A stretch of 33,744 nt of DNA from Chloroflexota bacterium (GCA_026713245.1 JAPOOU010000113.1:1-33744); one strand, 5' to 3'; counted from the first letter of the stretch, positions 3,016-30,105 are shown. Notes: generated by a model not told the origin, from the letters alone. Program-made: numbers and translations.

Positions 3016-3052
3016 AAGGTGGAAATATTTGCCCGAAGAGGAGCAGATAAAT

Positions 3053-9040: not shown

Positions 9041-9170
9041 GCCAATCTCAGTTGCGCTTGTCGAGTGCGAGAAAGGTCGCGTACGACATGGATTTTGACG
9101 CTATGGTCGAGCTTTATGTTTCAGCCTTGACCGGGCGCTAGCGAGCCGGTGGAACCTGCGGGAGGCGATA

Positions 9171-13524: not shown

Positions 13525-13618
13525 AAATCGCGCGTACCCGTTAGGATAGCCGGCCTTGGCGTCGGCTATCCCCCGGCAATTGCAAAATCTCTGCTCGCAA
13601 GCGGAGGGAGAAGAGATC

Positions 13619-14435: not shown

Positions 14436-15224
14436 ATGAACCATGGTCCATTCCGCAGAATGGTGGTCTTAGGAGACAGCATCTCCTACGGAATGTGCGC
14501 GTCGGAGCCCGCGAACGAGTGGAACCAGGTGGCGGCGAATTTGCTGCGTAAGTTCCAGGACGAGCGCCTGACGGTATTCAACCGCGGTCTGCCGGCCGGC
14601 GTGATATCTCCCCGCTGCCCAGGTTATGACGAATCGGCCAAGCCGAGCTTGCTGGAGCGCTATCGACAACATTGCATCGACTTGAAGCCGGACCTGGTGC
14701 TAATTGCCGAAGGCGTCAACGATATGCGCTCGGGCATGCCTCTGGGGGAATACATCGAAGACCTGGAGAGCATCGTCAGCGACATTCAAGAGCAGACCGG
14801 GGCGCTGATTGTCTTGCTCGGCGTATATCATCAAACTTACGGGGTGGGCGCCAACGACCCGGAAGTCTACCCCACCTGGACCCGCTGGAGCTACGAGATA
14901 TCCCGGGCCTACAACGTGGCAATTCGGAAAGTCGCGGAAAAGTATCGCGCGATCTTCGCCGATGCCGAGCAAATCATGGGCGGCGCTGACTGGTTGCTGC
15001 ATGTCGATGCCTGCCACCTCAACGACCTGGGGCACGTCCTGATCGGACAGGGCATCTTCCAGGCGATTGCTACACGCTGCAAATCGGTCGCGGACAAGAC
15101 ATTCCGAGTCATCCAGGAAAAGGATGTATCGATCCTGAATACCGGCGGCGCGGATACCGACGACGATATTCAGCAACTGTGGGCGACGGCGCTAAGCCGC
15201 TTCACCGAACACCTCGATGAATAA
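14436..15224 (+). CDS. SGNH/GDSL-family hydrolase, copy 2 (tandem paralogue)
   Basis: The 262-residue product aligns end to end with copy 1, with clearly more than half of residues identical by eye. Catalytic blocks are kept: VVLGDSISYG, GVNDMRSGM and DACHLND. Both copies share the family-specific segments FNRGLPAGV, SPRCPGY, AKPSL and SILNTGG, so this is a distinct SGNH subfamily that has duplicated in tandem. There is no signal peptide. The start has only weak ribosome binding sequence (GACGGGATTAAGCTT), which suggests translation coupled to copy 1. Differences in the region around the substrate pocket (VVVAQSLND against VLIAEGVND) may mean different acyl or sugar specificity. Confidence 0.88.
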   Translation: MNHGPFRRMVVLGDSISYGMCASEPANEWNQVAANLLRKFQDERLTVFNRGLPAGVISPRCPGYDESAKPSLLERYRQHCIDLKPDLVLIAEGVNDMRSGMPLGEYIEDLESIVSDIQEQTGALIVLLGVYHQTYGVGANDPEVYPTWTRWSYEISRAYNVAIRKVAEKYRAIFADAEQIMGGADWLLHVDACHLNDLGHVLIGQGIFQAIATRCKSVADKTFRVIQEKDVSILNTGGADTDDDIQQLWATALSRFTEHLDE

Positions 15225-15324: not shown

Positions 15325-16482
15325 TCAGGCGTATAAGGCTTTGGCTTCTTGAAACAGCCGCTTCAACTCGGCGAGCACTTGCCGGGCATCGCCTCCCCGC
15401 ATCAAATACTGGCGGATGGGCGCGCCGCCGTGATCCTGAAAATGCAAGTAACCGGGGAATCTCGGCCGCAGGTAAGCCCGGTCGAGCGCGGGCAAGGTAT
15501 TGCGGAAGTAGTTGCTGCTGCGGCGATTAACCTCGTCGTCGGTCCAGGCGCCGCGATGACCGGGCTGGCCGCCGTTCTCGAAGAACAGCGTTCTCTGGAT
15601 GACCGGGCTGGCGCTAAACATGGCGTAATCGCGCGCGATCTCCACCGACTTGCAGCCCGTGGAAATCGAGAGTCCGGTGCCGCCCAGCGTACTTTGGCAG
15701 CGCCCCTGGCCATCGATGTCGACCATGTCATCAAAAACCAGCACATTGTCCGAGTAGCCGGGGCGCGAATAATTAGAGTATCCGTAGGCGAAGGGACAGT
15801 AGACGTAATCTGCGCGCCGCGAAAGCGCTTCATATACGGCAATCGGATTCCAGGCGAAGATCTCCCGCGGGCACAGGCTGGCCAGTTCTCGCAATTGCTC
15901 CAGGGCGCTTAAGCTCATCTCGTCGGACACCGCCCATTCATCGTCGACGAAGGGCGCTTCGCCCCGGGTGGCGCAGAGCATGTAGAAATTCATCAGCGTA
16001 TCGATTTCTATGCCGGGCATAATAACCCGACCCTGCCGCGCCAGCGCCAGCAAATCGCTCCAGGCATCCGGCTTACGCAGATCGTAACGCGCGAGCAAAT
16101 CCGGCCGATAGGAAGCCACGGGTGTGGCCGCGTCAATGGCCAGGGCGCATTGATTGCCGTTGAAGATATAACTGGCGTGCGAATGCCCGACCGAGTTGGC
16201 TGCCTGATCCGCCATATAGTCGGCCGGGATGATTTCCTGTAGCGGGACCAAGACTTGACTGAAAGCCGCGTAACCGGCCCAAGGATGATCGATCACCAGC
16301 ATGTCATAGTCCTCGGCCAAGCCTTGAATCGGCGCGTCGGCGAATTCCTGCAATGAACGCTTCTCCCAGACGATTTCCACGTCCGGGCGCATCTCGCAAA
16401 AGCGCTGCGCGGTCGCAACCACCGATACAAAACCGCGTGAATGATTCCAGGTGATGCCACGTAACAGGGTCTTCGCCGTCAT
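15325..16482 (-). CDS. Solute-binding-protein-fold protein without signal peptide
   Basis: The 385-residue product resembles family-1 extracellular solute-binding proteins (RPDVEIVWEKRSLQEF, AEDYDMLVIDHPWAG, GTGLSIS, and a hinge-rich C-terminal half). The well-supported start (GGAGGCGAGAAC before the ATG at 16482) gives the N-terminus MTAKTLLRGITWNHSRGF, with no hydrophobic leader. The longer track ORF adds only a polar, Arg-rich extension, so a signal peptide is not being missed. No permease or ATPase adjoins it. It is therefore either a cytoplasmic ligand sensor or enzyme-like protein derived from a binding protein, or a misplaced transporter subunit. Related signal-less proteins, to my recollection, accompany CoA-transferase/MaoC/IclR genes in other bacteria. 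A strong promoter with tandem palindromes lies upstream. Confidence 0.75.
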   Translation of the reverse strand: MTAKTLLRGITWNHSRGFVSVVATAQRFCEMRPDVEIVWEKRSLQEFADAPIQGLAEDYDMLVIDHPWAGYAAFSQVLVPLQEIIPADYMADQAANSVGHSHASYIFNGNQCALAIDAATPVASYRPDLLARYDLRKPDAWSDLLALARQGRVIMPGIEIDTLMNFYMLCATRGEAPFVDDEWAVSDEMSLSALEQLRELASLCPREIFAWNPIAVYEALSRRADYVYCPFAYGYSNYSRPGYSDNVLVFDDMVDIDGQGRCQSTLGGTGLSISTGCKSVEIARDYAMFSASPVIQRTLFFENGGQPGHRGAWTDDEVNRRSSNYFRNTLPALDRAYLRPRFPGYLHFQDHGGAPIRQYLMRGGDARQVLAELKRLFQEAKALYA

Positions 16483-16542: not shown

Positions 16543-16602
16543 TTTTGCTTGCAAAAGTCAGTTTTATATGCAAAATATAGTGAGCGGGTTGCTCCTTGTC
16601 AA
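16543..16602 (-). promoter_or_regulatory. Near-consensus promoter with tandem TTTTGCnnGCAAAA operators (site 1)
   Basis: On the minus strand TTGACA (16597-16602) and TATATT (16574-16579) are 17 bp apart. Two 14-bp palindromic units follow: TTTTATATGCAAAA (16562-16575, plus-strand reading), overlapping the -10, and TTTTGCTTGCAAAA (16543-16556), with a 5-bp gap. The layout is the same as at site 2, pointing to repression by a dimeric regulator pair. The plus-strand gene MaoC starts 200 bp away, and TTGCAA-N16-CAAAAT on the plus strand could serve it, so the site may control both directions. Confidence 0.75.
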
Positions 16603-16652
16603 CCGGCGCGCGGTTTGGGAGCGGTGAATATGGCGCAGATCGCAATTTCTAA

Positions 16653-16684
16653 CCCCTCCCCAACGCATCCGAAGTAGAGGGGAG
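16653..16684. repeat. CCCCTCCCC...AGGGGAG hairpin repeat
   Basis: CCCCTCCCC and AGGGGAG flank a 16-base spacer in the gap upstream of the MaoC gene. It shares a GCATC-containing spacer with the element near 4010, supporting a common repeat family. Confidence 0.45.
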
Positions 16685-16781
16685 ATTATGTGCGGATCTA
16701 AGACACCAGACAAGTATTTCTTGTCCACGATGTTCACCACTCCCGCGTTTTCGTCCCCAGAGTGATAGACAGGAAGGGCTG

Positions 16782-17240
16782 ATGATCAAGACCAGGTATT
16801 ACGAAGATTATCTGATCGGGGAAAGCCGCGAGACCTTTGGCAGAACGATCACTGAAGCCGATATCGTGCTCCATGCCGGTCAAACGGGAGATTTTTTCCC
16901 GCACCACATGGACGCCGAGTGGGTTAAGACCCAGGTATTCAAAGAGCGCGTGGCGCATGGCACCTTGATCCTGTGCGTAGCCATCGGTATGACGGCCAAC
17001 GAGATCAATCCCGTCGCCTTCTCCTACGGCTACGACCGCGTCCGTTTCATTCGGCCGGTTTTCATCGGCGATACCATCACGGTCAAGGCGACCATCAGCG
17101 AAAAGCGCGATTATCCCAAGCGTCCCGATCACGGTTATGTGGTTGAGCAGGTCGAGGTCTTTAACCAGCATAACAAGATTGTTCTTGCTTGCCAGCATCT
17201 GTATCTGGTCCAACGCAAGGAAGGCGTGGAAAGCGACTAA
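16782..17240 (+). CDS. MaoC-like hot-dog dehydratase/hydratase
   Basis: The 152-residue product is a single hot-dog domain of the MaoC/(R)-enoyl-CoA hydratase type. The hydratase motif is present near residues 36-44 as GDFFPHHMD: Asp37 and His42 stand at the spacing of the catalytic dyad in GDxNPx[10 protein letters not shown] and [11 protein letters not shown] are standard family blocks. It probably adds or removes water on a CoA thioester in the cytoplasm, as a dimer. AGGAAGGGCTG precedes the ATG. The IclR regulator follows after about 55 bp, then an oxidoreductase, so these three probably form one transcript. A second MaoC protein at 22007-22510 lacks the motif histidine and may be its partner. 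Confidence 0.88.
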
Positions 17241-17295
17241 CTCGGCAAGACGAGCAATATACGGACAGACAGGAATCAATCACTTCAAATCAACA

Positions 17296-18108
17296 ATGAA
17301 TGAGCAAAAAGCGGGTCCCAATTACAGCGTCCCGGCTTTGGAGAAAGGCTTGGCTGTTCTGGAATTGCTTGCCGAAGCGTCCGAGCCGCTTTCGCTATCC
17401 CAGATCTCGGAGAAGACCGAGAACAGCACCAGCCAACTCTTCCGCACCATGACCTGCCTGGCGGAAAGCGGCTTTGTCATCAAGGACGATGTCTCTGGCA
17501 AGTACATGCTGACGCTAAAGCTCTTTGAACTGGCGAATCGACATTCGCCGCTGGAGCATCTGCTGCAGATGGCGGATTTGCCAATGCAAGAACTCGCGTG
17601 GACGATCCGCGAGTCCTGCCATATCAGCATTATGCAGCAGCGGCAGCTCCTGGTCGTCGGACAGGTGGAAAGCCCGGAGAAGGTGCAGATCATCGTCTCG
17701 GCAGGCGCTACCTTTCCGCTGACGCGGACGGTTTCGGGGCGCATATTACTTTCGTCCACACCCGATAGCAGCATCGAAATGACACTTGAACACGATCCCG
17801 AGTACTGCAGTATGAGCGCTGAAGAACGCGAGCTCTTTTGGCAGCGCATTGCTGATATTCGCCGTACCGGCATTTCAACCGCCGTGGACGAATCCTTCAT
17901 CGGCATGAAGGATACCGCCGTCCTTGTCGGCAACCCGGCAGTTGGGGTGACGGCAGCGGTCGCCGTCACGCAATTGACGGCGACCCGTCGCAGCAGCGAA
18001 CCGCATAAAGTAGTGGCAGCTTTGCGCCAGTGCGCGCGTCAGATCAACGAACGCGCCGGCTTGAGTTATGGATTGGAAAAGCCGATCTTGGTGGCGGACG
18101 CTGTCTGA
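17296..18108 (+). CDS. IclR-family transcriptional regulator
   Basis: The 270-residue product has an N-terminal winged helix-turn-helix at about residues 12-72 (VPALEKGLAVLELLAEA, LSLSQISEKTENSTSQLFRTMTCLAESGFV, KYMLTLKLFELA), then a C-terminal ligand-binding domain with RESCHISIMQQRQLLVV, FPLTRTVSGRILLS and a GISTAVDESFIGMKDTAVLVG block. This is the standard IclR layout and length; such proteins bind as dimers or tetramers to paired palindromes and respond to small acids or aromatics. The ATG at 17296 is preferred over the long upstream extension, which overlaps the MaoC gene. It is the only transcription factor gene in the window and lies at the centre of the genes carrying the tandem TTTTGCnnGCAAAA sites, so it is the natural candidate to bind them. 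Confidence 0.92.
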   Translation: MNEQKAGPNYSVPALEKGLAVLELLAEASEPLSLSQISEKTENSTSQLFRTMTCLAESGFVIKDDVSGKYMLTLKLFELANRHSPLEHLLQMADLPMQELAWTIRESCHISIMQQRQLLVVGQVESPEKVQIIVSAGATFPLTRTVSGRILLSSTPDSSIEMTLEHDPEYCSMSAEERELFWQRIADIRRTGISTAVDESFIGMKDTAVLVGNPAVGVTAAVAVTQLTATRRSSEPHKVVAALRQCARQINERAGLSYGLEKPILVADAV

Positions 18109-18222
18109 TCCGGACCAACAACCGCCCGGCGCGAATACGGCGTAAGTGTCTGTCACGCTTGCACAAAATAACAAGCCTGCTCCTTGCCCGACCAAGGGGT
18201 TGTAGACAAGAAGGAATATGCC

Positions 18223-19305
18223 ATGCCTCCATTCAGCGTTCGACAAAAGGCGATCTTGCCGGCAAACCCGCCCCCGATCGTAAGCATCGGCCTGGGCGGG
18301 ATCGTGCACGACGCCCATTATCCGGCTTATCACATCGCGGGCTTCGAGGTGGCCGGCGGCTTCGATATCGACGCCGAGCGCGCCGCTATGATGAAGGACA
18401 AGTTCTCAATACCGCGCATCTACGAATCACTCGGCCAGGCGATCGAAACGGCCCCGGAAAATGCTGTCTTTGATGTCGCCGTACCGGGCAGCGCAATCAG
18501 CGAAATAATCCGCGAAATCCCGGCCGGGCGCGCCGTTCTCATTCAAAAACCCATGGGGGAAGACATGGCGCAGGCGCGGCAGATCCTCGACCTTTGCCGC
18601 GAACGAAATCTGTTGGCAGCCATCAATTTCCAACTGCGCTTCGCGCCCTTTATCATCGCCGCGCGCGACATGATAGCGCAGGGTCTGATTGGCGAGCTCT
18701 GCGATTTGGAATTCCGCGTACAGTGCAATACGCCCTGGCGCCTGTGGGGCTTCCTCTTTCCCCTGCCTCGCGTCGAAATCCTGTATCACAGCATCCATTA
18801 TGTCGATCTGGTTCGGTCCTTCTGTGGCACGCCGACATCGGTATATGCCAAGACAATGAGCCATCCATCCGCGCCGGAACTGAAGGGCGGCGTCCGTTCC
18901 ATGATCATCATGGACTACGGCGAGAACCCGCGCGTCAACGTGATGACAAACCACAGCCACGCCTACGGGCCGGAAAAGCAGCAATCCTACGTCAAGTTCG
19001 AAGGCAGCAAGGGGGCCATCCAGATCCGCGCCGGATTGAATATGAATTATCCGGACGGCGTACCCGACCGCTTCGAGTACGTTTTGCCGGATGGCGAAAC
19101 GGAGCCCGAGTGGCAGTCGCTGAATATAGAAGGGACATGGTTCCCGGAAGCATTCATCGGCGCCATGGCCAGCTTGATGCGCTGCGCCAGTGGCGAGAGC
19201 GATGTTCTGCCGACATCGGTTGAAGACGCCATTGAAACGATGGCGACTGTGGAAGCGGCCTATGCATCCAGCGCGCAAGGCGGGACTGCGTTGCCTGCAT
19301 GGTAA
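18223..19305 (+). CDS. Gfo/Idh/MocA-family NAD(P)-dependent oxidoreductase
   Basis: The 360-residue product has the two-domain layout of the family. The N-terminal Rossmann fold begins PPIVSIGLGGIVHDAHYPAY, with the acidic cofactor-binding FDID at the end of the second strand, and VLIQKPMGED supplies the family EKP-type lysine motif (here QKP). The C-terminal domain includes NFQLRFAPF, VEILYHSIHYVDLVRSFCG with the usual active-site D-x-x-x-H-like histidine segment, and DVLPTSVEDAIETMATVEAAY near the end. Such enzymes oxidise or reduce sugars, sugar acids or inositols in the cytoplasm. The start is supported by AAGAAGGAATATGCC. Placed after the IclR gene and near a lactonase-type hydrolase, it could be the sugar dehydrogenase of the pathway; the substrate is inferred. 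Confidence 0.88.
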   Translation: MPPFSVRQKAILPANPPPIVSIGLGGIVHDAHYPAYHIAGFEVAGGFDIDAERAAMMKDKFSIPRIYESLGQAIETAPENAVFDVAVPGSAISEIIREIPAGRAVLIQKPMGEDMAQARQILDLCRERNLLAAINFQLRFAPFIIAARDMIAQGLIGELCDLEFRVQCNTPWRLWGFLFPLPRVEILYHSIHYVDLVRSFCGTPTSVYAKTMSHPSAPELKGGVRSMIIMDYGENPRVNVMTNHSHAYGPEKQQSYVKFEGSKGAIQIRAGLNMNYPDGVPDRFEYVLPDGETEPEWQSLNIEGTWFPEAFIGAMASLMRCASGESDVLPTSVEDAIETMATVEAAYASSAQGGTALPAW

Positions 19306-19392
19306 CGGGGTGGCAGGTATACGATTATTGCTGAAGGCGAGTTTGATCTAGAATGCCAGTTGGTGACGTCACAGCGGACCGGGAGAATTCCA

Positions 19393-19656
19393 ATGGAAGG
19401 GAATTCAGTTGTATCGATCGACATCATCATCCTTGCCCTGATTATACTTGTTTCCTTTCGCTGGCTTGAATGGAGGATAGACCGTCGCTCAGCCGGGTTT
19501 CAGCGGAAATCCAAAAGGAAAAGGCGCGAATTCTCCAGCGAAGGATATGGCGTGAAATCTGATGTGCGCTATGAGCTGCGAGGAGATATCATGCGCGTCG
19601 AGGCGAAAGTCGATGATGCCAGGCGGGCGACTAGCACGCATAGAAGAAAGACTTGA
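19393..19656 (+). CDS. Hypothetical small membrane/coiled-coil protein, probably frameshifted
   Basis: The 87-residue ORF starts MEGNSVVSIDIIILALIILVSFRW, one clear membrane helix, then a basic region and an amphipathic stretch (YELRGDIMRVEAKVDDA). After DDA the frame soon ends (TSTHRRKT), but the neighbouring frame continues the helical pattern with RLARIEERLEIREERAEAA. RVEAKVDDxR...RLARIEERL is a natural continuous coiled coil in related proteins, so a 1-base indel near 19623-19630 seems likely. The intact product would reach about residue 110-120 near 19700. Whether this is a decayed gene or an assembly error cannot be told here. The rest of the 407-bp gap between the oxidoreductase and the amidohydrolase shows nothing else. 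Confidence 0.45.
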   Translation: MEGNSVVSIDIIILALIILVSFRWLEWRIDRRSAGFQRKSKRKRREFSSEGYGVKSDVRYELRGDIMRVEAKVDDARRATSTHRRKT

Positions 19657-19712
19657 AATACGCGAGGAGCGGGCAGAAGCTGCGCCCCTCCAGCTACTGC
19701 CTAAGTGTTCGA

Positions 19713-20558
19713 CTACAAACCGAGACTGTAAAAGCTATTGGCCGTGCCGCCGAGCAAGGCGTCTTTATCCGCGTCGGACAAATCGGCGATGGCTTTATTG
19801 GTTTCGTCCCAGACCTTGGCGTAATCGCCGGCCAGCACAGCAACGGGCCAATCGCTGCCGAACATGAGCCGATCAACGCCGAATTGCTCGATCGCAAAGT
19901 CGATATGCGGTTTGATATCCTCGTGGGTCCAGTTCTCGAAATCGGGCGTAACCGTATTCAAGCCGGACAACTTGGCGAAGACATTGGGACTTTCCGCAGC
20001 GGCAGCCATCTGGTCGCGCCAGACCGCGCGGTCGGCTTCGTCCAGCGGCGGCTTCGCCAGGTGATCGATGACCATTTTCAGGTTGGGCACGCGTTCGACC
20101 AGCTCCGGCACGTGCTTGAGATGATTGGGAAACACCGCCACCACATCAAAGGTCAAGCCGCGGTCCGCCAGCAACTGCAAACCTTCGATCACCTGTTTCT
20201 GGATGACCCAATCGGGATTTCCCTCTTCGTGGATCAAATGGCGCATGCCCTTGAAATAAGGGTTCCGCGCATATTCATCCAGCTTTCTGTCGGCCTCTGC
20301 AGGATCATGCAGCGGCGCCCAGCCGACCACGCCGGCCACCCAGTCCTCTGCCGCCGCGATCGCCAACATCGAGTCGGTATCGGCATAGGAATCCATCGCT
20401 TGAACGATGACTGTCTTGTCGACGCCGGACGCCGCCAACTGCGGCGCCAGTTCCGCGGCATCGAAATTGCGGTAGATCGGCCCATAAGCAGGCACCAGCC
20501 AAGGGTATGCCACTTCATCAAGATTCCAAAAATGCTGGTGGGTATCAACTCTTAGCAT
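19713..20558 (-). CDS. Amidohydrolase-family lactonase (L-fuconolactonase-like, COG3618 type)
   Basis: The 281-residue product is a TIM-barrel amidohydrolase. The metal-binding HxH lies at the start (VDTHQHFWN, His7 and His9), followed by [25 protein letters not shown], a strand-4 MVIDHLAKP, and GSDWPV with the catalytic Asp. These blocks match the COG3618 lactonase group that opens fuconolactone, rhamnonolactone and related sugar lactones. GGGGAGGCAAGC before the ATG at 20558 sets the start and excludes the longer track ORF. It is transcribed divergently from the CoA-transferase, sharing a 149-bp control region with tandem palindromes. With fuconate dehydratase at 27933 it would supply consecutive steps of L-fucose oxidation. 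2-pyrone-4,6-dicarboxylate-type hydrolases are a more distant alternative. Confidence 0.87.
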
Positions 20559-20609
20559 GCTTGCCTCCCCGCTGGCTTGCGCCCGCCGCGGCGGACCGCG
20601 AAATTCGAT

Positions 20610-20669
20610 TTGACAGATCTGGTTTTGCTGACTATATTTTACATACAAAAAGTGTTTTTGCAAGCAAAA
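20610..20669 (+). promoter_or_regulatory. Near-consensus promoter with tandem TTTTGCnnGCAAAA operators (site 2)
   Basis: TTGACA (20610-20615), a 17-bp spacer and TATATT (20633-20638) make a near-ideal promoter for the CoA-transferase gene. The palindromic units TTTTACATACAAAA (20637-20650) and TTTTGCAAGCAAAA (20656-20669) begin at the last two bases of the -10 and are 5 bp apart. Read from the transcribed strand, this is the same order and spacing as site 1: a weaker unit on the -10 and a perfect unit downstream. The divergent amidohydrolase gene has TTGCAA-N16-TAAAAT within the same element. Confidence 0.78.
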
Positions 20670-20707
20670 CAGAATCACGGCGCGTGACGGGGGAGAACAA
20701 GGCCACT

Positions 20708-21865
<1,158 letters not shown>

Positions 21866-22006
21866 GCGCGACGCGCGGTAGAGCGGGCCGGTCGCGTAGG
21901 TCGCGCAAGTCGCGTAGACACTGACCCCTGACACGGACCGTCAAGCAAAAAACGTGAGAGCGCGGCAGACCTTTTGCCCTGCCGCCGAGCGGCTGAGGAG
22001 GCACCC

Positions 22007-22510
22007 ATGCCGGAAAACACACCTGTTGAAATGCACAAAGGCCTGCCCCTGTTTAATACCGAAACCTGGATGTACGAGGACTTCGAGATTGGCGCCAAGA
22101 TCAAATCGATTCGGCGCACGCTTTCCGAAGGCGAGTGCATGATCTTCAACGCCATCGTGCTTGATATGCACCCCTATGTTGCCGATGAGATATTCGCGCG
22201 GGACGAAGGCATCTTCGACAAACGGCTAGTCGCCGGCTCGATGGTTTTCAGCATCGGCCTTGGCTTGATGGCGCATAACAACATTCACACCTTCAGCTAC
22301 GGCTATGACAAGCTGCGCTTCATCAAGCCGGTTTTCATCGGAGATACGATCTATACCGTGCGCACGCAACTGAGCAAGGAACCGAAATACCCGGAGATGG
22401 GTCTGGTCAAAGTCAGTTACGAGATATACAAAAATGAAGGTGTGCTGGCTCTGTACTGCGAGCACCTGCAGACCGTGAAATATCGCCATCCGGAGAACTT
22501 CAAATCGTAG
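22007..22510 (+). CDS. MaoC-like hot-dog protein lacking the motif histidine
   Basis: The 167-residue product is a hot-dog domain related to the MaoC protein at 16782: [57 protein letters not shown] and a C-terminal [17 protein letters not shown]. At the hydratase motif it reads LDMHPYVAD (residues 52-60): the Asp is present, but the position of the catalytic His (Asp+5) is Val58. A compensating His at Asp+2 exists, as in GDxHPxH variants, but the dyad is incomplete. It may be a non-catalytic partner in a heterodimer with the first MaoC protein, as in mycobacterial HadAB, or bind CoA esters. GAGGAGGCACCC sets the start at 22007. Confidence 0.87.
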
Positions 22511-22609
22511 GTCGGCAGCGTTTAGGATTCCCACAGGCGCTTCGCGGTGACAATTGCAGCATTGAGCGCATTTTCGGATTCAGTTAGCGGTGACAAACAG
22601 GAGAGCAAC

Positions 22610-22933
22610 ATGCAACGGTTTGGACAAGTGATCGGCATCAAGAAAGAGCATCTGAAAGAATACACGGAACTGCATGCCAATACCTGGCCCGGCGTGCTCA
22701 AGAAGATCGAAGAATGCAATATCCGCAATTATTCGATTTTTCACTACGGCGATCTGCTTTTTGCTTACATGGAATACCATGGCGACGACTTTGAAGCCGA
22801 TATGGCAAAAATGGCGGCCGATGAGACGACACAGAAGTGGTGGGATATCTGCATGCCAATGCAGAATCCCGTACCCGACCGCGCCGAGGGCGAATGGTGG
22901 AAGACGCTCGACGAGGTCTTCCACACCGATTGA
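22610..22933 (+). CDS. L-rhamnose mutarotase-family protein (RhaM/YiiL-like)
   Basis: The 107-residue product is a small ferredoxin-like-fold mutarotase that interconverts sugar anomers. Family features are RFGQVIGIKKEHLKEYTELHANTWPGVLKKIEECNIRNYSIFHYGDLLFAYMEY with the conserved catalytic His and Tyr, TQKWWDICMPMQNPVPD and a closing WWKTLDEVFHTD. Length equals the family norm (about 104). Homologues act on L-rhamnose or L-fucose; the second fits the fuconate dehydratase nearby. CAGGAGAGCAAC precedes the ATG. It is the last gene of the CoA-transferase/MaoC transcript, with hairpins following. Specificity cannot be read from the sequence by eye. Confidence 0.92.
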   Translation: MQRFGQVIGIKKEHLKEYTELHANTWPGVLKKIEECNIRNYSIFHYGDLLFAYMEYHGDDFEADMAKMAADETTQKWWDICMPMQNPVPDRAEGEWWKTLDEVFHTD

Positions 22934-22967
22934 CGCTCCCAACGCCATCAGCAACGGCCCTTGCGAT

Positions 22968-22992
22968 CCCCTTCCCCGAGAGGGAAGTGGGG
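22968..22992 (+). terminator. Hairpin terminator candidate after the mutarotase gene
   Basis: CCCCTTCCC and GGGAAGTGGGG pair with a one-base bulge around a short loop and are followed by ACAGTTTT. It lies 34 bp after the stop. It is also similar to the dispersed C-rich/G-rich repeats, so termination is only probable. Confidence 0.45.
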
Positions 22993-23028
22993 ACAGTTTT
23001 GAATCAACACAGAGTGCGCCGATATAGC

Positions 23029-23102
23029 GGGTCAGCTGATAGCTGACCCCTACAGGGTCAATGTATATTTGAAAACAGTAGGGGCGACCAATCTGGTCGC
23101 CC
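23029..23102. repeat. Two short palindromes in the convergent gap
   Basis: GGGTCAGCT/AGCTGACCC around GAT (23029-23049) and GGGCGACCA/TGGTCGCCC around ATC (23082-23102) are perfect 9-bp hairpins with 3-base loops. The second matches the family at 922-987 and is preceded, as at 918, by GTAGGGGCGACC. They lie between convergent genes, where they may also limit read-through. Confidence 0.65.
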
Positions 23103-23225
23103 GAAAATCACCGCAATATATACAGATTCTATAGCGATATCGCGCCCGACGAAAACATGTGCTCTCCTCAGCCCATTGAAGAGGAAAGGGGCTGGGAGAC
23201 TTGCCGGTCAGGTGAACTAGCGCCC

Positions 23226-24344
23226 TTAATGAACCGCAATTGTAGCGTTGTCGATGAAATCCCAATCCCATTCGATGCCCGTGCCGGCGCCCTGCGGCGG
23301 ATGCGCGTAACCCTCGGCGTCTATATGAATCGGATTCTTGACACCCAGCCTCATCAGCGTGCTCGGGATCAGCGCTTCGAAGAATTCGCAATTGGCGATG
23401 GCGCAGCAACAATGCAAGTTGACGATATCAAGAGCGGGATAGACAGCCGTGTGCACTTCGCAACGAATGCCAAATGACTCCGCCAGATGCGCCGTTTTCA
23501 TCAAGGCGGTCACGCCGCCCTTCCACGAGACATCGCTGCGCACGATGTCCACCACGCCGCTGGCGATACACTCCGCCGTTGAATAGTGCGAGCCAACCAG
23601 CACCTCGGTGCCGGCGATGGGAATATCCAGGTCGCGCGCCAGGCGCCGCAAGCCATGAAAGTCGACATCATAAAGCGGTTCCTCGAACCAGTGATAGTTG
23701 AGCTTTTCCAGTTCCCGTCCCATGCGCAAGGCCTCATCGTAATAAAGATGCGCCGTTACCGGATCCGCCATCAACTTGAAATGCGGATCATCGCCGATTT
23801 GCTCGCGGCACAAGCGATAGGCTTCCAGGGCTTCGTTATAGTCGCCCGGCGGGTGCAGCTTGTAGCCATGGAAGCCCTGCTGCTTGAATTCGGCGACTTG
23901 ATCGGCATAGTCACCTGGCGAATCCAGGAACAGCGAACTAACGTAGGTCGGCACTTTTTCGCGATAGTGTCCCAACACCTTGTACAGCGGAAGATCGGCA
24001 ATTTTGCCGGCGATATCCCATAGCGCGATATCAAAGGGACCGTAAGAATAGATCGGCGGGAAGTGCCAGAAGCGATCATAACGCCGAAAGTCGTGCCAGT
24101 GTTTTTCGCGCGCCAACGCATCCTTGCCCAGGAAAAAAGGCTTGAGCGAATCGACGGCAATTGCGCCGGCCATTTCGGCGCCCATGCCGGCGAAGCCCAT
24201 GCTGATGCCGTCAATGCCCGCGTCCGTCGACAGCTTGACCATGATGAATTGCAGGTCGGAGCTTTGCACGTCGCGCATCTCGCCCTCAGCCATGACGGAT
24301 TCCTGGTGCTTGCAAACGCGGATTTCGATATCTGTGATTCTCAT
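23226..24344 (-). CDS. Mandelate racemase/muconate-lactonizing-type enolase-superfamily enzyme
   Basis: The 372-residue product has the enolase-superfamily capping domain and TIM barrel. Predicted metal ligands are Asp194 (LMADP), Glu221 (WFEEPLY) and Glu247 (AGTEVL). The end-of-strand-2 motif is K162-L-H164 (GYKLHPPGD) rather than the usual KxK, and a possible strand-7 base is His298 (CEVHTA). The nearest recognisable group is the mandelate racemase/sugar-acid dehydratase branch. It would abstract a proton alpha to a carboxylate and dehydrate or epimerise a sugar acid. It is the last gene of the operon with two permeases and a binding protein, 23 bp after the second permease gene, so its substrate is probably derived from the imported compound. 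Confidence 0.87.
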   Translation of the reverse strand: MRITDIEIRVCKHQESVMAEGEMRDVQSSDLQFIMVKLSTDAGIDGISMGFAGMGAEMAGAIAVDSLKPFFLGKDALAREKHWHDFRRYDRFWHFPPIYSYGPFDIALWDIAGKIADLPLYKVLGHYREKVPTYVSSLFLDSPGDYADQVAEFKQQGFHGYKLHPPGDYNEALEAYRLCREQIGDDPHFKLMADPVTAHLYYDEALRMGRELEKLNYHWFEEPLYDVDFHGLRRLARDLDIPIAGTEVLVGSHYSTAECIASGVVDIVRSDVSWKGGVTALMKTAHLAESFGIRCEVHTAVYPALDIVNLHCCCAIANCEFFEALIPSTLMRLGVKNPIHIDAEGYAHPPQGAGTGIEWDWDFIDNATIAVH

Positions 24345-24367
24345 GTCTCGCTCCAGTTATTGGCGGC

Positions 24368-25237
24368 TCAGCCCTTGACCGCGCCGAAGGTCAAACCGCT
24401 GACCAGGTTGCGCTGTACCAGAATGACAAAGATGACCGCGGGCACCATCATGATCACGCTCATGGCGGCCATGCCGCGCCAATCTACCGTGAATTGCTCG
24501 GTAAAGGCGAACAGGCCGGGCGGGAATGTTTTGGCGGCGTTATTGCGCGCCAGGACGCTGACGATCTGAAATTCGTTCCAGGCAGCCAGAAAAGCGAAGA
24601 TGGCAGCCGTCGCCAAGCCGGGCAAGGAGAGCGGCAGTTCAATACGCCAGAAGGCCGACCAGTGTCCGCAGCCGTCGATATAGGCTGATTCAGTCAGCTC
24701 CTGCGGGATCTGGCGGAAGAAGCCATCCATCAGCCAAGCAGTGAAGGGGATATTGACGGCGATATAAACAAATGCCAGGCCGAAAACATTATTGGTTAGT
24801 CCGGCCCGGTTAAAGAGCAAGAAGAGCGGCAAACTCAGGGCGACGCCTGGTACCGAGCGCGAAAGCATGATGCCGAGGAAAAGCGTGGTATGAAAGCGGA
24901 AGCGGAAGCGAGCAAAGGCATAACCGGCCAGCGTGCCCAGCGAAACCGCGACGATCGTGCTGGTGCCGGCCGCTAGAAGCGAGTTGCGCAGGTAGGCTTC
25001 GACCGCGACGCGCTGCTGCACTTCGGGGTTCAAGCCGAACATATTGGCGTAGGCTTCCAGCGTCAGCCGCTGCGGGATCCACACTGGCGGGAAGGAATTG
25101 ATTTCGGAATTAGGGCGGAAAGCCGTCGTGATGATCCAGAAGGCCGGCAGCGCCAAAGCCAGCAGCGCCGCCCAGGCGACGGCATTCCAGATGGCGTCGT
25201 TGCGGCGGCGGTTCGGTCCCACGCTGCGCGTGTTCAT
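24368..25237 (-). CDS. CUT1 ABC sugar transporter permease (MalG-like)
   Basis: The 289-residue inner-membrane protein has six predicted helices, among them AVAWAALLALALPAFWIIT near the N-terminus and VIMMVPAVIFVILVQRNLV near the end. The EAA loop that contacts the ATPase is ESAYIDGCGHWSAFWRIELPLSLPG, and the C-terminus LTFGAVKG is typical of MalG-type subunits. The ATG at 25237 overlaps the stop of the preceding permease by 4 bp, so translation is coupled; the longer track ORF is spurious. The operon contains no ATPase gene. Confidence 0.92.
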   Translation of the reverse strand: MNTRSVGPNRRRNDAIWNAVAWAALLALALPAFWIITTAFRPNSEINSFPPVWIPQRLTLEAYANMFGLNPEVQQRVAVEAYLRNSLLAAGTSTIVAVSLGTLAGYAFARFRFRFHTTLFLGIMLSRSVPGVALSLPLFLLFNRAGLTNNVFGLAFVYIAVNIPFTAWLMDGFFRQIPQELTESAYIDGCGHWSAFWRIELPLSLPGLATAAIFAFLAAWNEFQIVSVLARNNAAKTFPPGLFAFTEQFTVDWRGMAAMSVIMMVPAVIFVILVQRNLVSGLTFGAVKG

Positions 25238-26190
25238 CGCACAATTCTCGCTTTGACCAATTGCCGGAAGAAATACAGCGTGAAAAGCACCGACAGGAAA
25301 ACTGTGATCCAGGACATCGCGCTGCCCAAGCCGAATTTGGTATTCTCGATGGACAGGCGGGTGATATAGGTCCATAGCATCTCGGTGCGATGGGCGGGGC
25401 CGCCGTCGGTCATGATGCGCACGATATCAAAAGCGCGGGCGATATCCAGTGACATGATCGTCAGGGCGATGTAGGTGAAAGGCGCCAGCAGCGGAAAGGT
25501 AATGAACCGAAATTTCTGCCAGCCCGAAGCGCCATCAACCTCCGCCGCCTCAAAGGTTTCAGTCGGCAGAGACAGTGTGCCGGCAAGCAAGATTATCGTC
25601 AGCACCGGGATATTCATCCACACCGAAGCCACGATGATGGAGAACATGCCCAGCGGCACATCGACCAGCCAGGCGATCTGGCCTTGAGCCTGGATTAAGC
25701 CCAGGCTGTAAAGGAAGTTGTTGACCAAACCGACGCTGGCATTGAAGAACCAACGGAATTGCATGCCCACCAAGATTGGCGCGAACATCATCGGCACCAT
25801 CAACAGCGTGCGCAAGATGCTCTGGCCCACTGTCACCCTCGCCAGCAATTGCGATAGCGCCAAAGATAGCGCGTAACTCAAATTGACCGAGACGGCCAGG
25901 AAAATAATCGTATTGCCCAGCGAGCGCCAAAAGATCGCGTCATCCAAAAGTTTTTCATAATTGCGCAGCGCCTTGCCGAGCGTGAAGTTCAAACTATTAG
26001 GGCGCAGCAGCTCATAAGGCGTGAAGCTGACATATAGGGAATAGACCAGTGGAAAAGCAATGACGAGCAGGATGACGACGACGGAGGGCAGAATCAACAT
26101 ATAGGGGAAGGCGCCAGCCTCCAGCCGATTACTGTGGGCGACCTGGATCGGCGCTTCTTCTTCGGTATTCCTTGAGCGGTTAAGAGTCAT
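25234..26190 (-). CDS. CUT1 ABC sugar transporter permease (MalF-like)
   Basis: The 318-residue inner-membrane protein carries a polar N-terminal tail of about 27 residues, then FPYMLILPSVVVILLVIAFPLVYSLYVSF and further helices (TIIFLAVSVNLSYALSLALS, FSIIVASVWMNIPVLTIILL). The EAA loop is EAAEVDGASGWQKFRFITFPLL and MTDGGPAHRTEMLWTYI is the usual MalF-type block. It pairs with the downstream MalG-like protein. A 165-bp gap with hairpins separates it from the binding-protein gene upstream, a common way to make the binding protein in excess. Confidence 0.92.
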   Translation of the reverse strand: MTLNRSRNTEEEAPIQVAHSNRLEAGAFPYMLILPSVVVILLVIAFPLVYSLYVSFTPYELLRPNSLNFTLGKALRNYEKLLDDAIFWRSLGNTIIFLAVSVNLSYALSLALSQLLARVTVGQSILRTLLMVPMMFAPILVGMQFRWFFNASVGLVNNFLYSLGLIQAQGQIAWLVDVPLGMFSIIVASVWMNIPVLTIILLAGTLSLPTETFEAAEVDGASGWQKFRFITFPLLAPFTYIALTIMSLDIARAFDIVRIMTDGGPAHRTEMLWTYITRLSIENTKFGLGSAMSWITVFLSVLFTLYFFRQLVKARIVR

Positions 26191-26221
26191 GGACCGAGCA
26201 ACAGCAAAGTTTGCACATAAG

Positions 26222-26246
26222 GCGGGCGACTCGCGAAGTCGCCCGC
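26222..26246. repeat. GCGGGCGACT/AGTCGCCCGC hairpin in the binding-protein/permease gap
   Basis: A perfect 10-bp stem with a 5-base loop lies after the binding-protein gene and before the permease start (minus-strand operon). Its arms belong to the GGGCGAC family seen at 922-987. It probably attenuates read-through or blocks RNA decay, favouring binding-protein expression. TTTT follows only on the plus strand, where no gene ends. Confidence 0.6.
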
Positions 26247-26355
26247 TTTTGGTGATGTATTAGAGCCTTGCCGCGTTCAAGAGAGAATGGGAGTGTGTCA
26301 CTAGCGAAACAGTCCCATCCTCCTTGTGGGGCCCCGGGTGGGGATTTGTCAGGCT

Positions 26356-27723
26356 CTAATCGTAATAGCCCGCATCCGCCATCAGCTCGCGGGTATCGGC
26401 CGCGGCTTGGTCCAAGCCTTCCTGCGCGCCGATATCACCCAGCATGATGGCTTGCACTTTGGGATACAGAATGTTGGAGAAGGGAATCCACTCTGCGATC
26501 AGGGGCGGCGTGCGGAAGTCTTCAGCCACTTGCAGCTTTGCCAGCTCCAGCCGTTCGCGGTCAAGCGCGCGGTCGGAGGCTGCGGCATCCGCGATCACGC
26601 GATCCCATACATCGTCACGTGTCGGCAGGTAACCCAACTGCGCTTCTTCATAAGCAACGCGTTCGGAGCTCAGGAACTTAATCAGCTGTATACCCGCCTG
26701 CGGATTCGGCGCGGAGGCCGGCACGGAGAAGGCATGGGCGCCAGCCCAGCCGGAGGGACGAACCGCGTCGCCGCCGATGCTCAAGCCGGTGAAGCCGCGC
26801 GCCAAACCGAAGTTCTCGCTGATGTTCGGGCAGTTTTCAGGATCCTGGAAGTAGGCGTACCAGCCGTACCATTCCAGCTTAATGGCGGTATCGCCGTTGC
26901 AGAAGTAGGCAGCCACGCCATCCCATACCAGCGAGGTGGTATCGGCCGGGATGATGCCATCCTGATACCAGCCGCGCAGCATCTCGGCCACAGCCACGCC
27001 GATTTCGTCGTTGAAGACGGGCTCCCAATTCTCGTCGAACATGGCGCCGCCGCTGGCGAAGACCATCTCGTAGAAGCGGCCATTGAGGGCTTCGTCGCGG
27101 CCCGCCAGGGTGTAGCCATAGGTGCTATGGTCATTCTCGACGAAGAATCGCGCCTGGCGATCAATCTGCTCGAGTGTGCTCGGCACTTCCAATGCCTCGC
27201 CTGTGGCTTCCATGTAGGCGGCGGCAATCGCTTCGTCCTCATAGAGGTCCTTGCGATAGTGGATAGGGCTGATATCCGCGTGGCGTGGGATGAGGTAGAG
27301 GTTGCCGTCGATGGTGGCGGCGTCCAGGATGGCGGGGCTAAAGGGCGCCAGTTCTTCTTCGCTGAAGTAATCTTGGAGCGGCAGCAAGAAAGGCGTGTAC
27401 TGGGCGACGAAGCTGGTGTGATCCCACGCCACGTCATAATCGGCCGCGCCGGTGGCGAAGTCTACTTTGAGTTTCTGGTCTATGGCGAAGCCATCCAGCA
27501 GGGCCACTATCTCGACCGTGGCGCCGGTGGCTTCTTCAAAAATGGGAATGGATTCGTACATGGCTTCATAGGTGCCACCGCCGATATTCGCCATCTTGAT
27601 GTTGATGCCAGACAGATCCATGTCCAGGCCGGCGTACTGCGGCTCGTCCTGCGCTGTCGCCGGCAGGGCGAGCAGCCAGACCAGCGCCAAGACCAACACA
27701 ATTAACGAGAGTTTGCGAATCAT
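26356..27723 (-). CDS. CUT1-type extracellular sugar-binding protein
   Basis: The 455-residue secreted protein has a signal peptide (MIRKLSLIVLVLALVWLLALPATAQ, AxA cleavage, no lipobox) and the solute-binding family 1 pattern: IPIFEEATGATVEIVALLD, AADYDVAWDHTSFVAQY, LYLIPRHADISPIHYRKDLYED, WEPVFNDE, and a C-terminal WAGAHAFSVPASAPNPQAGIQLIKFLSSE. The ATG at 27723 is chosen because AAGGGAGAAG precedes it and the signal peptide starts there; the upstream extension is polar. It heads an operon with two permeases and an enolase-superfamily enzyme. Operators of site 3 lie upstream, shared with the divergent fuconate dehydratase gene, which suggests a fucose-related or similar sugar ligand (inference). 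Confidence 0.92.
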   Translation of the reverse strand: MIRKLSLIVLVLALVWLLALPATAQDEPQYAGLDMDLSGINIKMANIGGGTYEAMYESIPIFEEATGATVEIVALLDGFAIDQKLKVDFATGAADYDVAWDHTSFVAQYTPFLLPLQDYFSEEELAPFSPAILDAATIDGNLYLIPRHADISPIHYRKDLYEDEAIAAAYMEATGEALEVPSTLEQIDRQARFFVENDHSTYGYTLAGRDEALNGRFYEMVFASGGAMFDENWEPVFNDEIGVAVAEMLRGWYQDGIIPADTTSLVWDGVAAYFCNGDTAIKLEWYGWYAYFQDPENCPNISENFGLARGFTGLSIGGDAVRPSGWAGAHAFSVPASAPNPQAGIQLIKFLSSERVAYEEAQLGYLPTRDDVWDRVIADAAASDRALDRERLELAKLQVAEDFRTPPLIAEWIPFSNILYPKVQAIMLGDIGAQEGLDQAAADTRELMADAGYYD

Positions 27724-27867
27724 TATCTGTCTTCTCCCTTCTTTCAGATAATCCTGCAATTGAACTGCTAGTGCCATAAATCAGTACATTCGCTTATATC
27801 TTACCCCTTTCGCAATGCATTCGCTATCCCGCCTGCGGGAGCCAAAAAAGGCTGCTAAGCTATAAGG

Positions 27868-27912
27868 ACTATAGCAAGATTTTGCCAGCAAAACAAGTTT
27901 TTGCCAGCAAAA
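27868..27912. promoter_or_regulatory. Divergent control region with two identical TTTTGCCAGCAAAA operators (site 3)
   Basis: Two identical copies of TTTTGCCAGCAAAA (27880-27893 and 27899-27912) are 5 bp apart, the same spacing as at sites 1 and 2, and are preceded by GACTATA as there. They lie 20 bp before the fuconate dehydratase start. On the minus strand, TTGTTT (27891-27896) and TATAGT (27868-27873) at 17 bp form a plausible promoter for the binding-protein operon lying within the element. A -35 for the plus-strand gene is not clear. A GCTATA/TATAGC inverted repeat (27859-27875) adjoins. Confidence 0.75.
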
Positions 27913-27932: not shown

Positions 27933-29174
27933 ATGCGCGACATATCCATCAGCAGAATAAGCACCCATGACCTGCGATTTGCGCTGGAAGAAGGCGCCGG
28001 CGCCGACAGCGTGCATTCCAATCCGCAGTATTCATACGCCGTAACAGAGATCCAGACAAATGGCTACCTGTCCGGCATCGGATTGGCCTTTACCCTGGGC
28101 GGCGGAAACGATCTGGTCTGCCGCGCCATCGACGATCTGGCTGGTGTGTTGGTCGGCCGCGAAGTCGAAGCGCTGATGGCAGAATTTGGGGCCGTCTACG
28201 CGCTCATGCTGGAACATCCACAGTATCGCTGGCTGGGTCCCCACAAGGGCGTTGTGCATCTGGCCCTGTCGTCGATCGTCAACGCCTGCTTCGACCTGTG
28301 GGCCAAGGCGCGAGGCTTGCCCCTGTGGCGGCTGCTGCTGGATTTGACGCCGGAGCAACTGCTGGCGACGCTGCATCTGCGCTACATCGACGATGCGCTG
28401 AGCGCGGACGACGCATTGGCGATTCTTCGGAACGAGCATCGGCTGCGGGGACAGCGGATGGACATTCTTGAACAGGGCTATCCCGGCTACGACACGTCGA
28501 TTGGATGGATCCAGTACACCGATGACACCATCAAAGAGAACCTGGTCAAATCGATGGATCAGGGTTTCGATTCGGTCAAACTCAAGGTCGGCTCGGATGA
28601 TCCGGCGCGCGATATCCGCCGCGCCTTTCTGGTGCGCGATACAGTCGGCGACGACGCCCGCGTCATGCTCGATGTCAATCAACAATGGACCTTGCCGCAA
28701 GCGCTGGAAATGTGCCGGGAACTACGCGCGATGAATCCCTACTGGATCGAAGAACCCACGCACCCCGACGATGTGCTGGCTCATCAGGCGCTGGCTCGCG
28801 CCGTCGCGCCGATGAAGCTGGCAATCGGCGAGCACCTGCCCAATCAAGTCCTCTTCAAGAATTATCTCCAGGCCGATGCCGCGGGATTCCTGCAGCCGGA
28901 TTGCGTGCGGCTCGGCGGCGTCAGCGAATTCATCGCGGTGAGTTTAATGGCGCGCAAGTACGATATACCGGTCGTGCCGCATGTCGGCGACATGGGCCAG
29001 ATCCACCAGCATCTGGTACTCTTCAATCATATCGCCTTGGGTCACGAAGCGATCTTCCTGGAATACATTCCGCACCTGCGGCAGCATTTCACGGCGCCGG
29101 CGCGCGTGGAAGGCGGGGTCTATGCGACGCCCCAAGAGCCGGGCAGCAGTTCCGATCTGAAGGCGCTACGCTGA
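27933..29174 (+). CDS. fucD: L-fuconate dehydratase (enolase superfamily)
   Basis: The 413-residue product matches the fuconate dehydratase subgroup (bacterial FucD, human ENOSF1) and would convert L-fuconate to 2-keto-3-deoxy-L-fuconate in the cytoplasm. Catalytic residues fall almost exactly where I recall them in the Xanthomonas enzyme: K216-L-K218 (SVKLKVG), Asp247 (MLDVNQQW), Glu273 or Glu274 (WIEEPTHPDD), Glu300 (IGEHLPNQVLFK) and His350 (VVPHVGDMGQ). The early GLAFTLGGGND and GPHKGVVHLALSSIVNACFDLWAK blocks also fit. Length is normal. AGGAGCATTCAC sets the start. It is divergent from the CUT1 operon and shares its operators. Activity on another 6-deoxy or pentonic acid is possible. Confidence 0.9.
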   Translation: MRDISISRISTHDLRFALEEGAGADSVHSNPQYSYAVTEIQTNGYLSGIGLAFTLGGGNDLVCRAIDDLAGVLVGREVEALMAEFGAVYALMLEHPQYRWLGPHKGVVHLALSSIVNACFDLWAKARGLPLWRLLLDLTPEQLLATLHLRYIDDALSADDALAILRNEHRLRGQRMDILEQGYPGYDTSIGWIQYTDDTIKENLVKSMDQGFDSVKLKVGSDDPARDIRRAFLVRDTVGDDARVMLDVNQQWTLPQALEMCRELRAMNPYWIEEPTHPDDVLAHQALARAVAPMKLAIGEHLPNQVLFKNYLQADAAGFLQPDCVRLGGVSEFIAVSLMARKYDIPVVPHVGDMGQIHQHLVLFNHIALGHEAIFLEYIPHLRQHFTAPARVEGGVYATPQEPGSSSDLKALR

Positions 29175-29199: not shown

Positions 29200-30105
29200 T
29201 CATCGCGCCAGGCGGTCAATCAAGAAATCCTCGAAGCCCTTGGCATCAACATCCAGCGCGACTCGAGCGTTCTCGGGCCAATCGGCATCCGGCGAGCGCA
29301 TGAAGGTCACGCCGGCCGCGAAGCGCCCGCCCGTCTCCACATCCACGTGAAGCGGGGTCAAGCTGACCAGCTCCGGTCGGATCAAGATCGCCGCCGCCAG
29401 GGGATCGTGCATGAAGGTCCAGCCGCGGTCGGCGAAAAAGGGATAAAGGTCGATCTGATCGGCCACCGCACTGTGGAAGGCTGTGCCCGCCGCGCGTATC
29501 CGCGCCGAGCCCTCGCGCCTGACCCGCACTTGCAACGTAACATCAAGCGGAATCAGTGTGATAGGCGCGCCGGACGTGAAGACGATATGCGCCGCTTCCG
29601 GATCGCTGACGATGTTGTGCTCGCCGTAATCGGCATAGACATCGGCCGAGCGCTGGAAAGCGCCGCCCATGATGGTCAGCCCGGCAAGGTTTTCCGCAAG
29701 GCGCGGCTCTTGACGAAGCGCCAGGGCGGCGTTGGTCAAGGGACCAATGCAAAGCAGATGAATTTGCCCGGGATTGTCCATCACGGCACGGACGATGAAA
29801 TTGACTGCGGATTCCGAAGCCGGTTGCAGGGCCTCGTCATCCTCGTTCAGGAAACCTTGTCCTTCGTGCCCGCCCCAATAAACCGGACGCGTACCGAGCA
29901 AGGGCTTGGTCGCGCCCTGCGTCACCGGCACATCGCTCCGCCCGCGCATGCGCAAGAGCTTCAGCGCCATGCGCGCCCTCAACAGCACATCGCCATAGAC
30001 GCAGGTCACGCCGACAAGCTCGGTCTCAGGCGAATTGAGCAAGAGCGCCAGGGCGACGATGTCGTCCACATCGGTGCCGATATCGGTATCAAATATGACT
30101 TTCAC
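29200..30105 (-). CDS. Inosine/uridine-preferring nucleoside hydrolase family protein (second paralogue)
   Basis: The 301-residue product has the DTDIGTDVDD calcium/ribose-binding motif (residues 6-15), a variant with two extra residues that marks a different subgroup from the paralogue at 3053. Other blocks are CIGPLTNAALAL, TIMGGAF, EHNIVSDPEAA and MHDPLAA, where the His-Asp pair expected in active hydrolases is present (the 3053 protein has Pro-Asp). It is the last gene of the operon of the second CUT1 importer, 63 bp after the permease gene, which points to a nucleoside or ribosylated compound as the imported ligand. It is convergent with fucD, 25 bp apart. Confidence 0.92.
   Translation of the reverse strand: MKVIFDTDIGTDVDDIVALALLLNSPETELVGVTCVYGDVLLRARMALKLLRMRGRSDVPVTQGATKPLLGTRPVYWGGHEGQGFLNEDDEALQPASESAVNFIVRAVMDNPGQIHLLCIGPLTNAALALRQEPRLAENLAGLTIMGGAFQRSADVYADYGEHNIVSDPEAAHIVFTSGAPITLIPLDVTLQVRVRREGSARIRAAGTAFHSAVADQIDLYPFFADRGWTFMHDPLAAAILIRPELVSLTPLHVDVETGGRFAAGVTFMRSPDADWPENARVALDVDAKGFEDFLIDRLAR

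What the first reader, a model, noticed from the sequence alone, without database searches (positions are those of the whole stretch)
16543..27912. Tandem 14-bp palindromes with fixed 5-bp spacing define a local regulon
Three intergenic regions (16543-16575, 20637-20669, 27880-27912) each contain two palindromes of the form TTTTGCnnGCAAAA, always separated by exactly 5 bp (19-bp centre spacing, nearly two helical turns). In each a GACTATA or CACTATA box stands just upstream on the transcribed strand, and at two sites the pair overlaps a TTGACA-N17-TATATT promoter. They flank the signal-less binding-protein homologue, MaoC-IclR-oxidoreductase, lactonase, CoA-transferase, fuconate dehydratase and the CUT1 importer. 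The IclR protein at 17296, the only regulator here, is the likely binder and probably regulates itself. All coordinates and spacings were read directly; the regulator assignment is inference.
Basis: partly seen in the sequence, partly recalled or inferred. Interest (0 to 1): 0.85.

Follow-up and report, generated by a model that had tools for sequence, protein, structure and literature searches.

The report
IclR repressor's three-operator catabolic regulon
Three promoters in this Chloroflexota genome carry a unique pair of DNA palindromes that is present or absent together with a neighbouring IclR-type regulator gene, so they are almost certainly its operators for a small sugar-acid/CoA catabolic gene set: a well-supported but fairly ordinary regulatory circuit.

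Summary
Each reported position carries two 14-bp palindromes with a 5-bp gap (19-bp centre spacing). In the 4.87-Mb genome the pair occurs only at these three places (about 7e-5 expected by chance). Across 811 genomes of the phylum the exact pair occurs in 25, each with an IclR homologue. In the family, 24 of 24 genomes with the IclR orthologue have it and 0 of 74 without.

All 68 pairs in those 24 genomes lie at the same three promoters: SBPx/MaoC-IclR-oxidoreductase, lactonase/CoA-transferase-MaoC-mutarotase, and CUT1 importer/fuconate dehydratase. Five genomes of the genus keep these operons but lack both iclR and every operator; four still show the TTGACA-N17-TATAGT core promoter at the CoA-transferase gene. 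This is one clade, one event. A genome of another family has the pairs directly upstream of a 40%-identical IclR.

Likely mechanism: an autoregulated IclR repressor, two dimers side by side, blocking these promoters. Tandem operators 18-22 nt apart are known for about half of IclR groups (PMC8222616), so this is a new member of a known kind. The half-site fits neither published consensus exactly. Binding is not shown experimentally.

The parts
16543..16575 (.). Operator S1: tandem palindromes TTTTGCTTGCAAAA-N5-TTTTATATGCAAAA, between SBPx and MaoC1-IclR-GFO
   Evidence: conserved at the same promoter in relatives
16574..16602 (-). SBPx core promoter TTGACA-N17-TATATT (-35 at 16597-16602, -10 at 16574-16579), overlapped by S1; the same ATATA core gives TATAGT (16576-16581) as a possible -10 for MaoC1-IclR on the plus strand
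   Evidence: sequence; conservation and the G305 split, (use as promoter is inference)
20637..20669 (.). Operator S2: TTTTACATACAAAA-N5-TTTTGCAAGCAAAA, between lactonase-like gene and CoA-transferase
20610..20638 (+). CoA-transferase core promoter TTGACA-N17-TATATT, overlapped by S2; kept as TTGACA-N17-TATAGT in IclR-minus genomes
27880..27912 (.). Operator S3: TTTTGCCAGCAAAA-N5-TTTTGCCAGCAAAA, between CUT1 importer and fuconate dehydratase
27868..27896 (-). Likely importer promoter TTGTTT-N17-TATAGT (-35 inside S3)
   Evidence: sequence; TATAC/TATAGT conserved on this strand in relatives, (inference)
17296..18108 (+). IclR-family regulator, proposed binder
   Evidence: Pfam HTH_IclR 3e-11, IclR_C 9e-25; co-occurrence
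15325..16482 (-). SBPx, solute-binding-protein homologue starting MTAKTLLRG without an obvious signal peptide
   Evidence: Pfam SBP_bac_8 3e-7
16782..17240 (+). MaoC1 hydratase, first gene of the IclR operon
   Evidence: Pfam MaoC_dehydratas 1e-22
18184..19305 (+). GFO/IDH/MocA oxidoreductase
19713..20561 (-). Amidohydrolase_2, L-fucono-1,5-lactonase-like
20708..21865 (+). Family III CoA-transferase
   Evidence: Pfam 8e-93
22010..22510 (+). MaoC2 hydratase
22610..22933 (+). RhaM, L-rhamnose mutarotase family
   Evidence: Pfam 3e-32
23226..24344 (-). Mandelate racemase/muconate lactonizing enzyme (MLE2)
24368..27777 (-). CUT1-type importer: two permeases and solute-binding protein
27933..29174 (+). 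L-fuconate dehydratase homologue
   Evidence: PDB 2hne 1e-103

Best explanation
The pairs are the operators of the IclR-family regulator encoded at 17296-18108. Two IclR dimers sit side by side, 19 bp apart on one face of the DNA, and cover the -10/start region at S1 and S2 and the -35/spacer at S3. They block RNA polymerase at three divergent promoters, including the one for the regulator's own operon. A catabolite, probably a sugar acid or a related CoA-pathway acid, is expected to release them. Shown by comparison: uniqueness of the sites, fixed spacing, conservation at three orthologous promoters, and joint presence or absence with iclR. Inferred: physical binding, repression rather than activation, tetramer, ligand.
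For: Pair unique to the three promoters in the genome. 24/24 family genomes with the IclR orthologue have exact pairs, 0/74 without (Fisher 2e-23, not corrected for relatedness). All 68 pairs (up to 2 mismatches) lie at the same three promoters. With gaps of 0-30 allowed, every exact pair has N5. Five genomes keep the operons without iclR and without any operator; four of them keep the CoA-transferase core promoter. In G305 SBPx moved away with its own operator copy. In G143 (other family) two tandem pairs stand upstream of IclR (40%)-MaoC1-GFO. No other DNA-binding regulator found in the window. Tandem palindromes 18-22 nt apart are predicted for 94 of 181 IclR groups (PMC8222616).
Against: No binding or expression data. 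The joint absence is one clade, so one evolutionary event with weak branch support (60/59). The palindrome matches neither published IclR consensus exactly. The recognition-helix region of the G143 IclR is not specially conserved (4 of 19 identical). G454 has a displaced SBPx without an operator. The MaoC1-IclR promoter in this window is uncertain, with no good -35.
Confidence: 0.86

Rival explanations
1. A different transcription factor, encoded elsewhere in the genome (for example LacI- or GntR-type), binds the pairs, and iclR is merely a neighbour.
For: Binding was not measured; symmetric A/T-rich palindromes occur in several regulator families; the other regulators of the genome were not listed.
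Against: Operators vanish exactly where iclR is missing while the operons stay. The G143 operator stands at the promoter of its own iclR. The 19-bp tandem spacing is a known IclR-family trait (PMC8222616). No other DNA-binding regulator found in the window.
Confidence: 0.08
2. The same IclR binds the pairs but acts as an activator or as a dual regulator rather than as a simple repressor.
For: The IclR family includes activators and dual regulators (PMC8222616); the divergent layout would allow opposite effects on the two directions.
Against: The pair overlaps the -10/start region at S1 (SBPx) and S2 and the -35/spacer at S3. The S2 promoter is near consensus (TTGACA-N17-TATATT) and a similar core promoter persists in genomes without IclR, as expected if no activator is needed.
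Confidence: 0.15
3. The palindromes are an RNA hairpin, a terminator-like element or a dispersed repeat rather than protein-binding DNA.
For: They are inverted repeats, and part of S1 and S2 would be transcribed.
Against: Only three copies per genome, always at the same promoters. At S3 the pair lies over the -35/spacer of the proposed importer promoter. The 5-bp gap varies in sequence but hardly ever in length. Half-sites vary within R-Y classes (TTTTGC, TTTTAC, TTTTGT, TTTTAT).
Confidence: 0.02

Closest known systems
Tandem operators of IclR-family regulators (Suvorova and Gelfand 2021, PMC8222616)
   Same: Two palindromes 18-22 nt apart centre to centre (here 19), small local regulon, autoregulation, sugar-acid genes; COG3254 and COG3618 named there as frequently associated in IclR regulogs.
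   Different: Palindrome TTTTRY-N2-RYAAAA has a 2-nt centre and T/A where group 1 (GKTYCRYW3-4RYGRAMC) has C/G; it also does not fit group 2 (TGRAACAN1-2TGTTYCA).
TtgV of Pseudomonas putida (PDB 2xrn/2xro)
   Same: IclR-family protein crystallised on operator DNA; family relative of this IclR (2xrn, 2.5e-11); binding as tetramer is cited for the family.
   Different: Weak sequence relation; TtgV controls solvent efflux pumps, not sugar-acid genes; operator sequence not compared here.
KdgR (IclR-family regulator of pectin and oligogalacturonate use)
   Same: IclR regulator of sugar-acid catabolism; model hit 3.5e-23, far below its cutoff.
   Different: Operator RWWGAAACGNCGTTTCAKKA (PMC8222616) is unlike TTTTRYN2RYAAAA.
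Oxidative L-fucose catabolism (lactonase, mutarotase, L-fuconate dehydratase)
   Same: Lactonase-like, mutarotase-family and L-fuconate dehydratase homologues present.
   Different: A family III CoA-transferase and two MaoC hydratases are in the same regulon, and fuconate dehydratase was found in only 10 of the 30 genomes compared, so the pathway is not settled.

Membership tests
IclR-family regulator | N-terminal IclR winged helix-turn-helix plus C-terminal IclR effector domain, about 250 aa | tested here: met
   HTH_IclR 3.2e-11 at 14-64 and IclR_C 8.8e-25 at 88-251, both above curated cutoffs
IclR tandem-operator regulon | Tandem palindromes with 18-22 nt between centres | tested here: met
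   19 bp at all sites in the window and in every exact pair of 24 genomes; one 18-bp site in G463
IclR tandem-operator regulon | Palindrome of group 1 GKTYCRYW3-4RYGRAMC or group 2 TGRAACAN1-2TGTTYCA | tested here: not met
   Consensus over 136 palindromes is TTTTRYNNRYAAAA; shares the RY..RY core with group 1 but has a 2-nt centre and no C/G outside it
IclR tandem-operator regulon | Sites present in genomes with the regulator and absent without it | tested here: met
   24/24 versus 0/74, including five genomes with the operons but no iclR
IclR tandem-operator regulon | Regulator binds the site, as a dimer or tetramer | not testable with these tools
   Needs gel shift or footprinting
Oxidative L-fucose catabolism | Dehydrogenase, lactonase, fuconate dehydratase and final cleavage enzymes together | tested here: inconclusive
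   Lactonase-like, mutarotase and fuconate dehydratase present; no aldolase or ketodeoxyfuconate step recognised among the window proteins scanned; extra CoA-transferase and MaoC genes

The most novel reading that the evidence does not exclude
This IclR lineage recognises an operator architecture (TTTTRY-N2-RYAAAA half-sites, 2-nt centre, tandem at 19 bp) outside the two published IclR motif groups, and it controls a so far undescribed route that joins sugar-acid dehydration to CoA-thioester chemistry in these Chloroflexota.
Probability: 0.3. Interest if true: 0.5.

Novelty: new member of a known kind. Interest (0 to 1): 0.36.

Why it matters
It gives a clean regulon for an uncultured Chloroflexota lineage: one regulator, three operators, and a natural 'deletion' clade in which regulator and operators are gone while the operons remain. 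It ties CoA-transferase/MaoC genes and a signal-less solute-binding protein of unknown role to sugar-acid catabolism, which can guide enzyme assays. It also adds an operator sequence that falls outside the published IclR consensus groups.

Tried and rejected
Mobile repeat or widespread element: rejected, three copies per genome, all at promoters. Variable spacing: with gaps of 0-30 only N5 was found. A separate GACTATA box: rejected, it is the -10 region. SBPx as the gene that tracks the operator: it is missing from the locus in IclR-minus genomes, but three of them keep it elsewhere on the same contig without an operator. The G397 two-mismatch hit has no homologue of the window genes on its 10-kb contig and no IclR orthologue in the genome, and is treated as chance. 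The 33302 three-mismatch site is too weak to count. Conserved recognition helix in G143: looked for and not found. The first literature query for tetrameric IclR operators returned nothing relevant. More distant copies: the MaoC1 search in G143's family found only G143 itself.

Full report
Observation. Reading the three regions confirms two 14-bp palindromes at each reported position with a 5-bp gap. Four of six are exact TTTTGCnnGCAAAA; the form that fits all is TTTTRYnnRYAAAA. In the whole 4.87-Mb genome the loose pair TTTTN6AAAAN5TTTTN6AAAA occurs only at these three places, against about 7e-5 expected from base composition. All four exact TTTTGCnnGCAAAA of the genome lie within them. Allowing three mismatches adds only three weak sites.

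Spread. The exact pair was searched in 396 genomes of the class, all 98 held of the family and 400 of the phylum, 811 different genomes by handle number. It occurs in 25: 24 in the family and G143 of another family. In the family the IclR orthologue is present in exactly those 24 genomes. The 74 genomes without it have no exact pair and one two-mismatch hit (G397), on a contig with no homologue of the window genes. With the gap free between 0 and 30, every match has a gap of 5. The named close relatives are metagenome-assembled Chloroflexi/Anaerolineae; a sponge origin is suggested by bin names only and was not checked.

Position. Mapping the window's proteins onto the related regions places all 68 pairs of the 24 genomes at the same three divergent promoters. 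S1 lies between SBPx and MaoC1-IclR-GFO, S2 between the lactonase-like amidohydrolase and CoA-transferase-MaoC2-RhaM, S3 between the CUT1 importer and, where present, fuconate dehydratase. Three genomes have fewer than three pairs: G019 and G456 have contig ends there, and in G463 S3 is present but one base shorter. Among divergent genomes the palindromes average 84-100% pairwise identity, while most flanks average 28-39%. The exceptions are core promoter elements: S2 upstream with TTTGACA..CTATA, and S1 downstream with the SBPx -35.

Natural experiment 1. Five genomes of the genus (G191, G319, G344, G453, G461) keep most of the operons in the same layout, with MaoC1 81-90% identical. The iclR gene is absent from between MaoC1 and GFO, no IclR orthologue was found in these genomes, and the best pair in each region has 6-8 mismatches. 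In the four whose lactonase/CoA-transferase spacer was read, the core promoter is TTTGACA-N17-TATAGT and the operator that should follow it is missing. These five form one group in a tree of six linked proteins, so this is one event; branch support is only 60/59.

Natural experiment 2. In G305 SBPx has moved 13 kb and carries its own operator copy and its -35, while MaoC1-IclR keeps another copy that has lost that -35 but kept TATAGT. This suggests that the operator serves both directions and that the shared ATATA core provides a -10 on each strand (inference). A counter-example is G454, whose displaced SBPx has no operator.

Natural experiment 3. In G143, a genome of another family found only by the DNA pattern, the match is directly upstream of IclR (40% identical), MaoC1 (82%) and GFO (53%). 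A second, weaker pair, also spaced 19 bp, lies 80 bp further. Its first pair has TTTTAY half-sites rather than TTTTGC, and its recognition-helix region differs. This is compatible with co-evolution but rests on one case.

Mechanism. At S1 (for SBPx) and S2 the pair starts on the last two bases of the -10 and covers the start point. At S3 it covers the -35 and most of the spacer of a likely leftward promoter. These are blocking positions, next to near-consensus promoters at S1 and S2, so repression is the most economical reading. S1 also precedes the regulator's own operon, so autoregulation is expected. A spacing of 19 bp places two dimers on nearly the same DNA face. Suvorova and Gelfand (PMC8222616) predict tandem palindromes 18-22 nt apart for 94 of 181 IclR orthologous groups (181) and link this to tetramer binding. 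Binding, ligand and sign of regulation remain inferred here.

What is regulated. Fuconate dehydratase is clear (PDB 2hne, 1e-103). The amidohydrolase resembles L-fucono-1,5-lactonase (NCBIfam 3e-61, but below its cutoff; PDB 4dlf). RhaM is a mutarotase family member. COG3254 and COG3618, to which RhaM and the lactonase belong by my own knowledge, are named as frequently associated in IclR regulogs (PMC8222616). The family III CoA-transferase and two MaoC hydratases do not belong to the usual fucose route. On G143's 12.5-kb contig only GFO, MaoC1, IclR, SBPx and CoAT were recognised besides a distant SBP, so the oldest shared core may be a CoA-thioester pathway. The substrate is therefore open.

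Comparison and verdict. Membership of the IclR family is met by domains. The tandem geometry and regulon layout match the known kind. The sequence of the palindrome does not match either published consensus group, and that feature is recorded as not met. It is a well-supported new member of a known kind, of moderate interest.

Noticed in passing
15325-16482 (-): SBPx, a solute-binding-protein homologue without an obvious signal peptide, is conserved next to IclR/MaoC1 in most relatives and even in G143 of another family (66% identical). Its role inside the cell is unknown.
   Followed up: partly
8765-9130 (+): Short open frame with only the N-terminal alcohol dehydrogenase domain (ADH_N), probably a truncated gene.
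   Followed up: no
13556-14422 and 14436-15224 (+): Two adjacent paralogous GDSL/SGNH hydrolases next to a sugar ABC importer.
   Followed up: no
5944-6387 (+): Small coiled-coil protein with a repeated LKTDV/LKADV heptad; a coiled-coil protein of similar look stands between GFO and the lactonase in IclR-minus genomes (L129 8023-8487, L131, L132).
   Followed up: no
3050-3985 (+) and 29200-30105 (-): Two inosine-uridine nucleoside hydrolase homologues, each near ABC importer genes.
   Followed up: no
L096 3943-11328: In G451 about 7 kb is inserted between GFO and the lactonase, splitting the cluster, yet all three operators remain (one with 1 and one with 2 mismatches).
   Followed up: no
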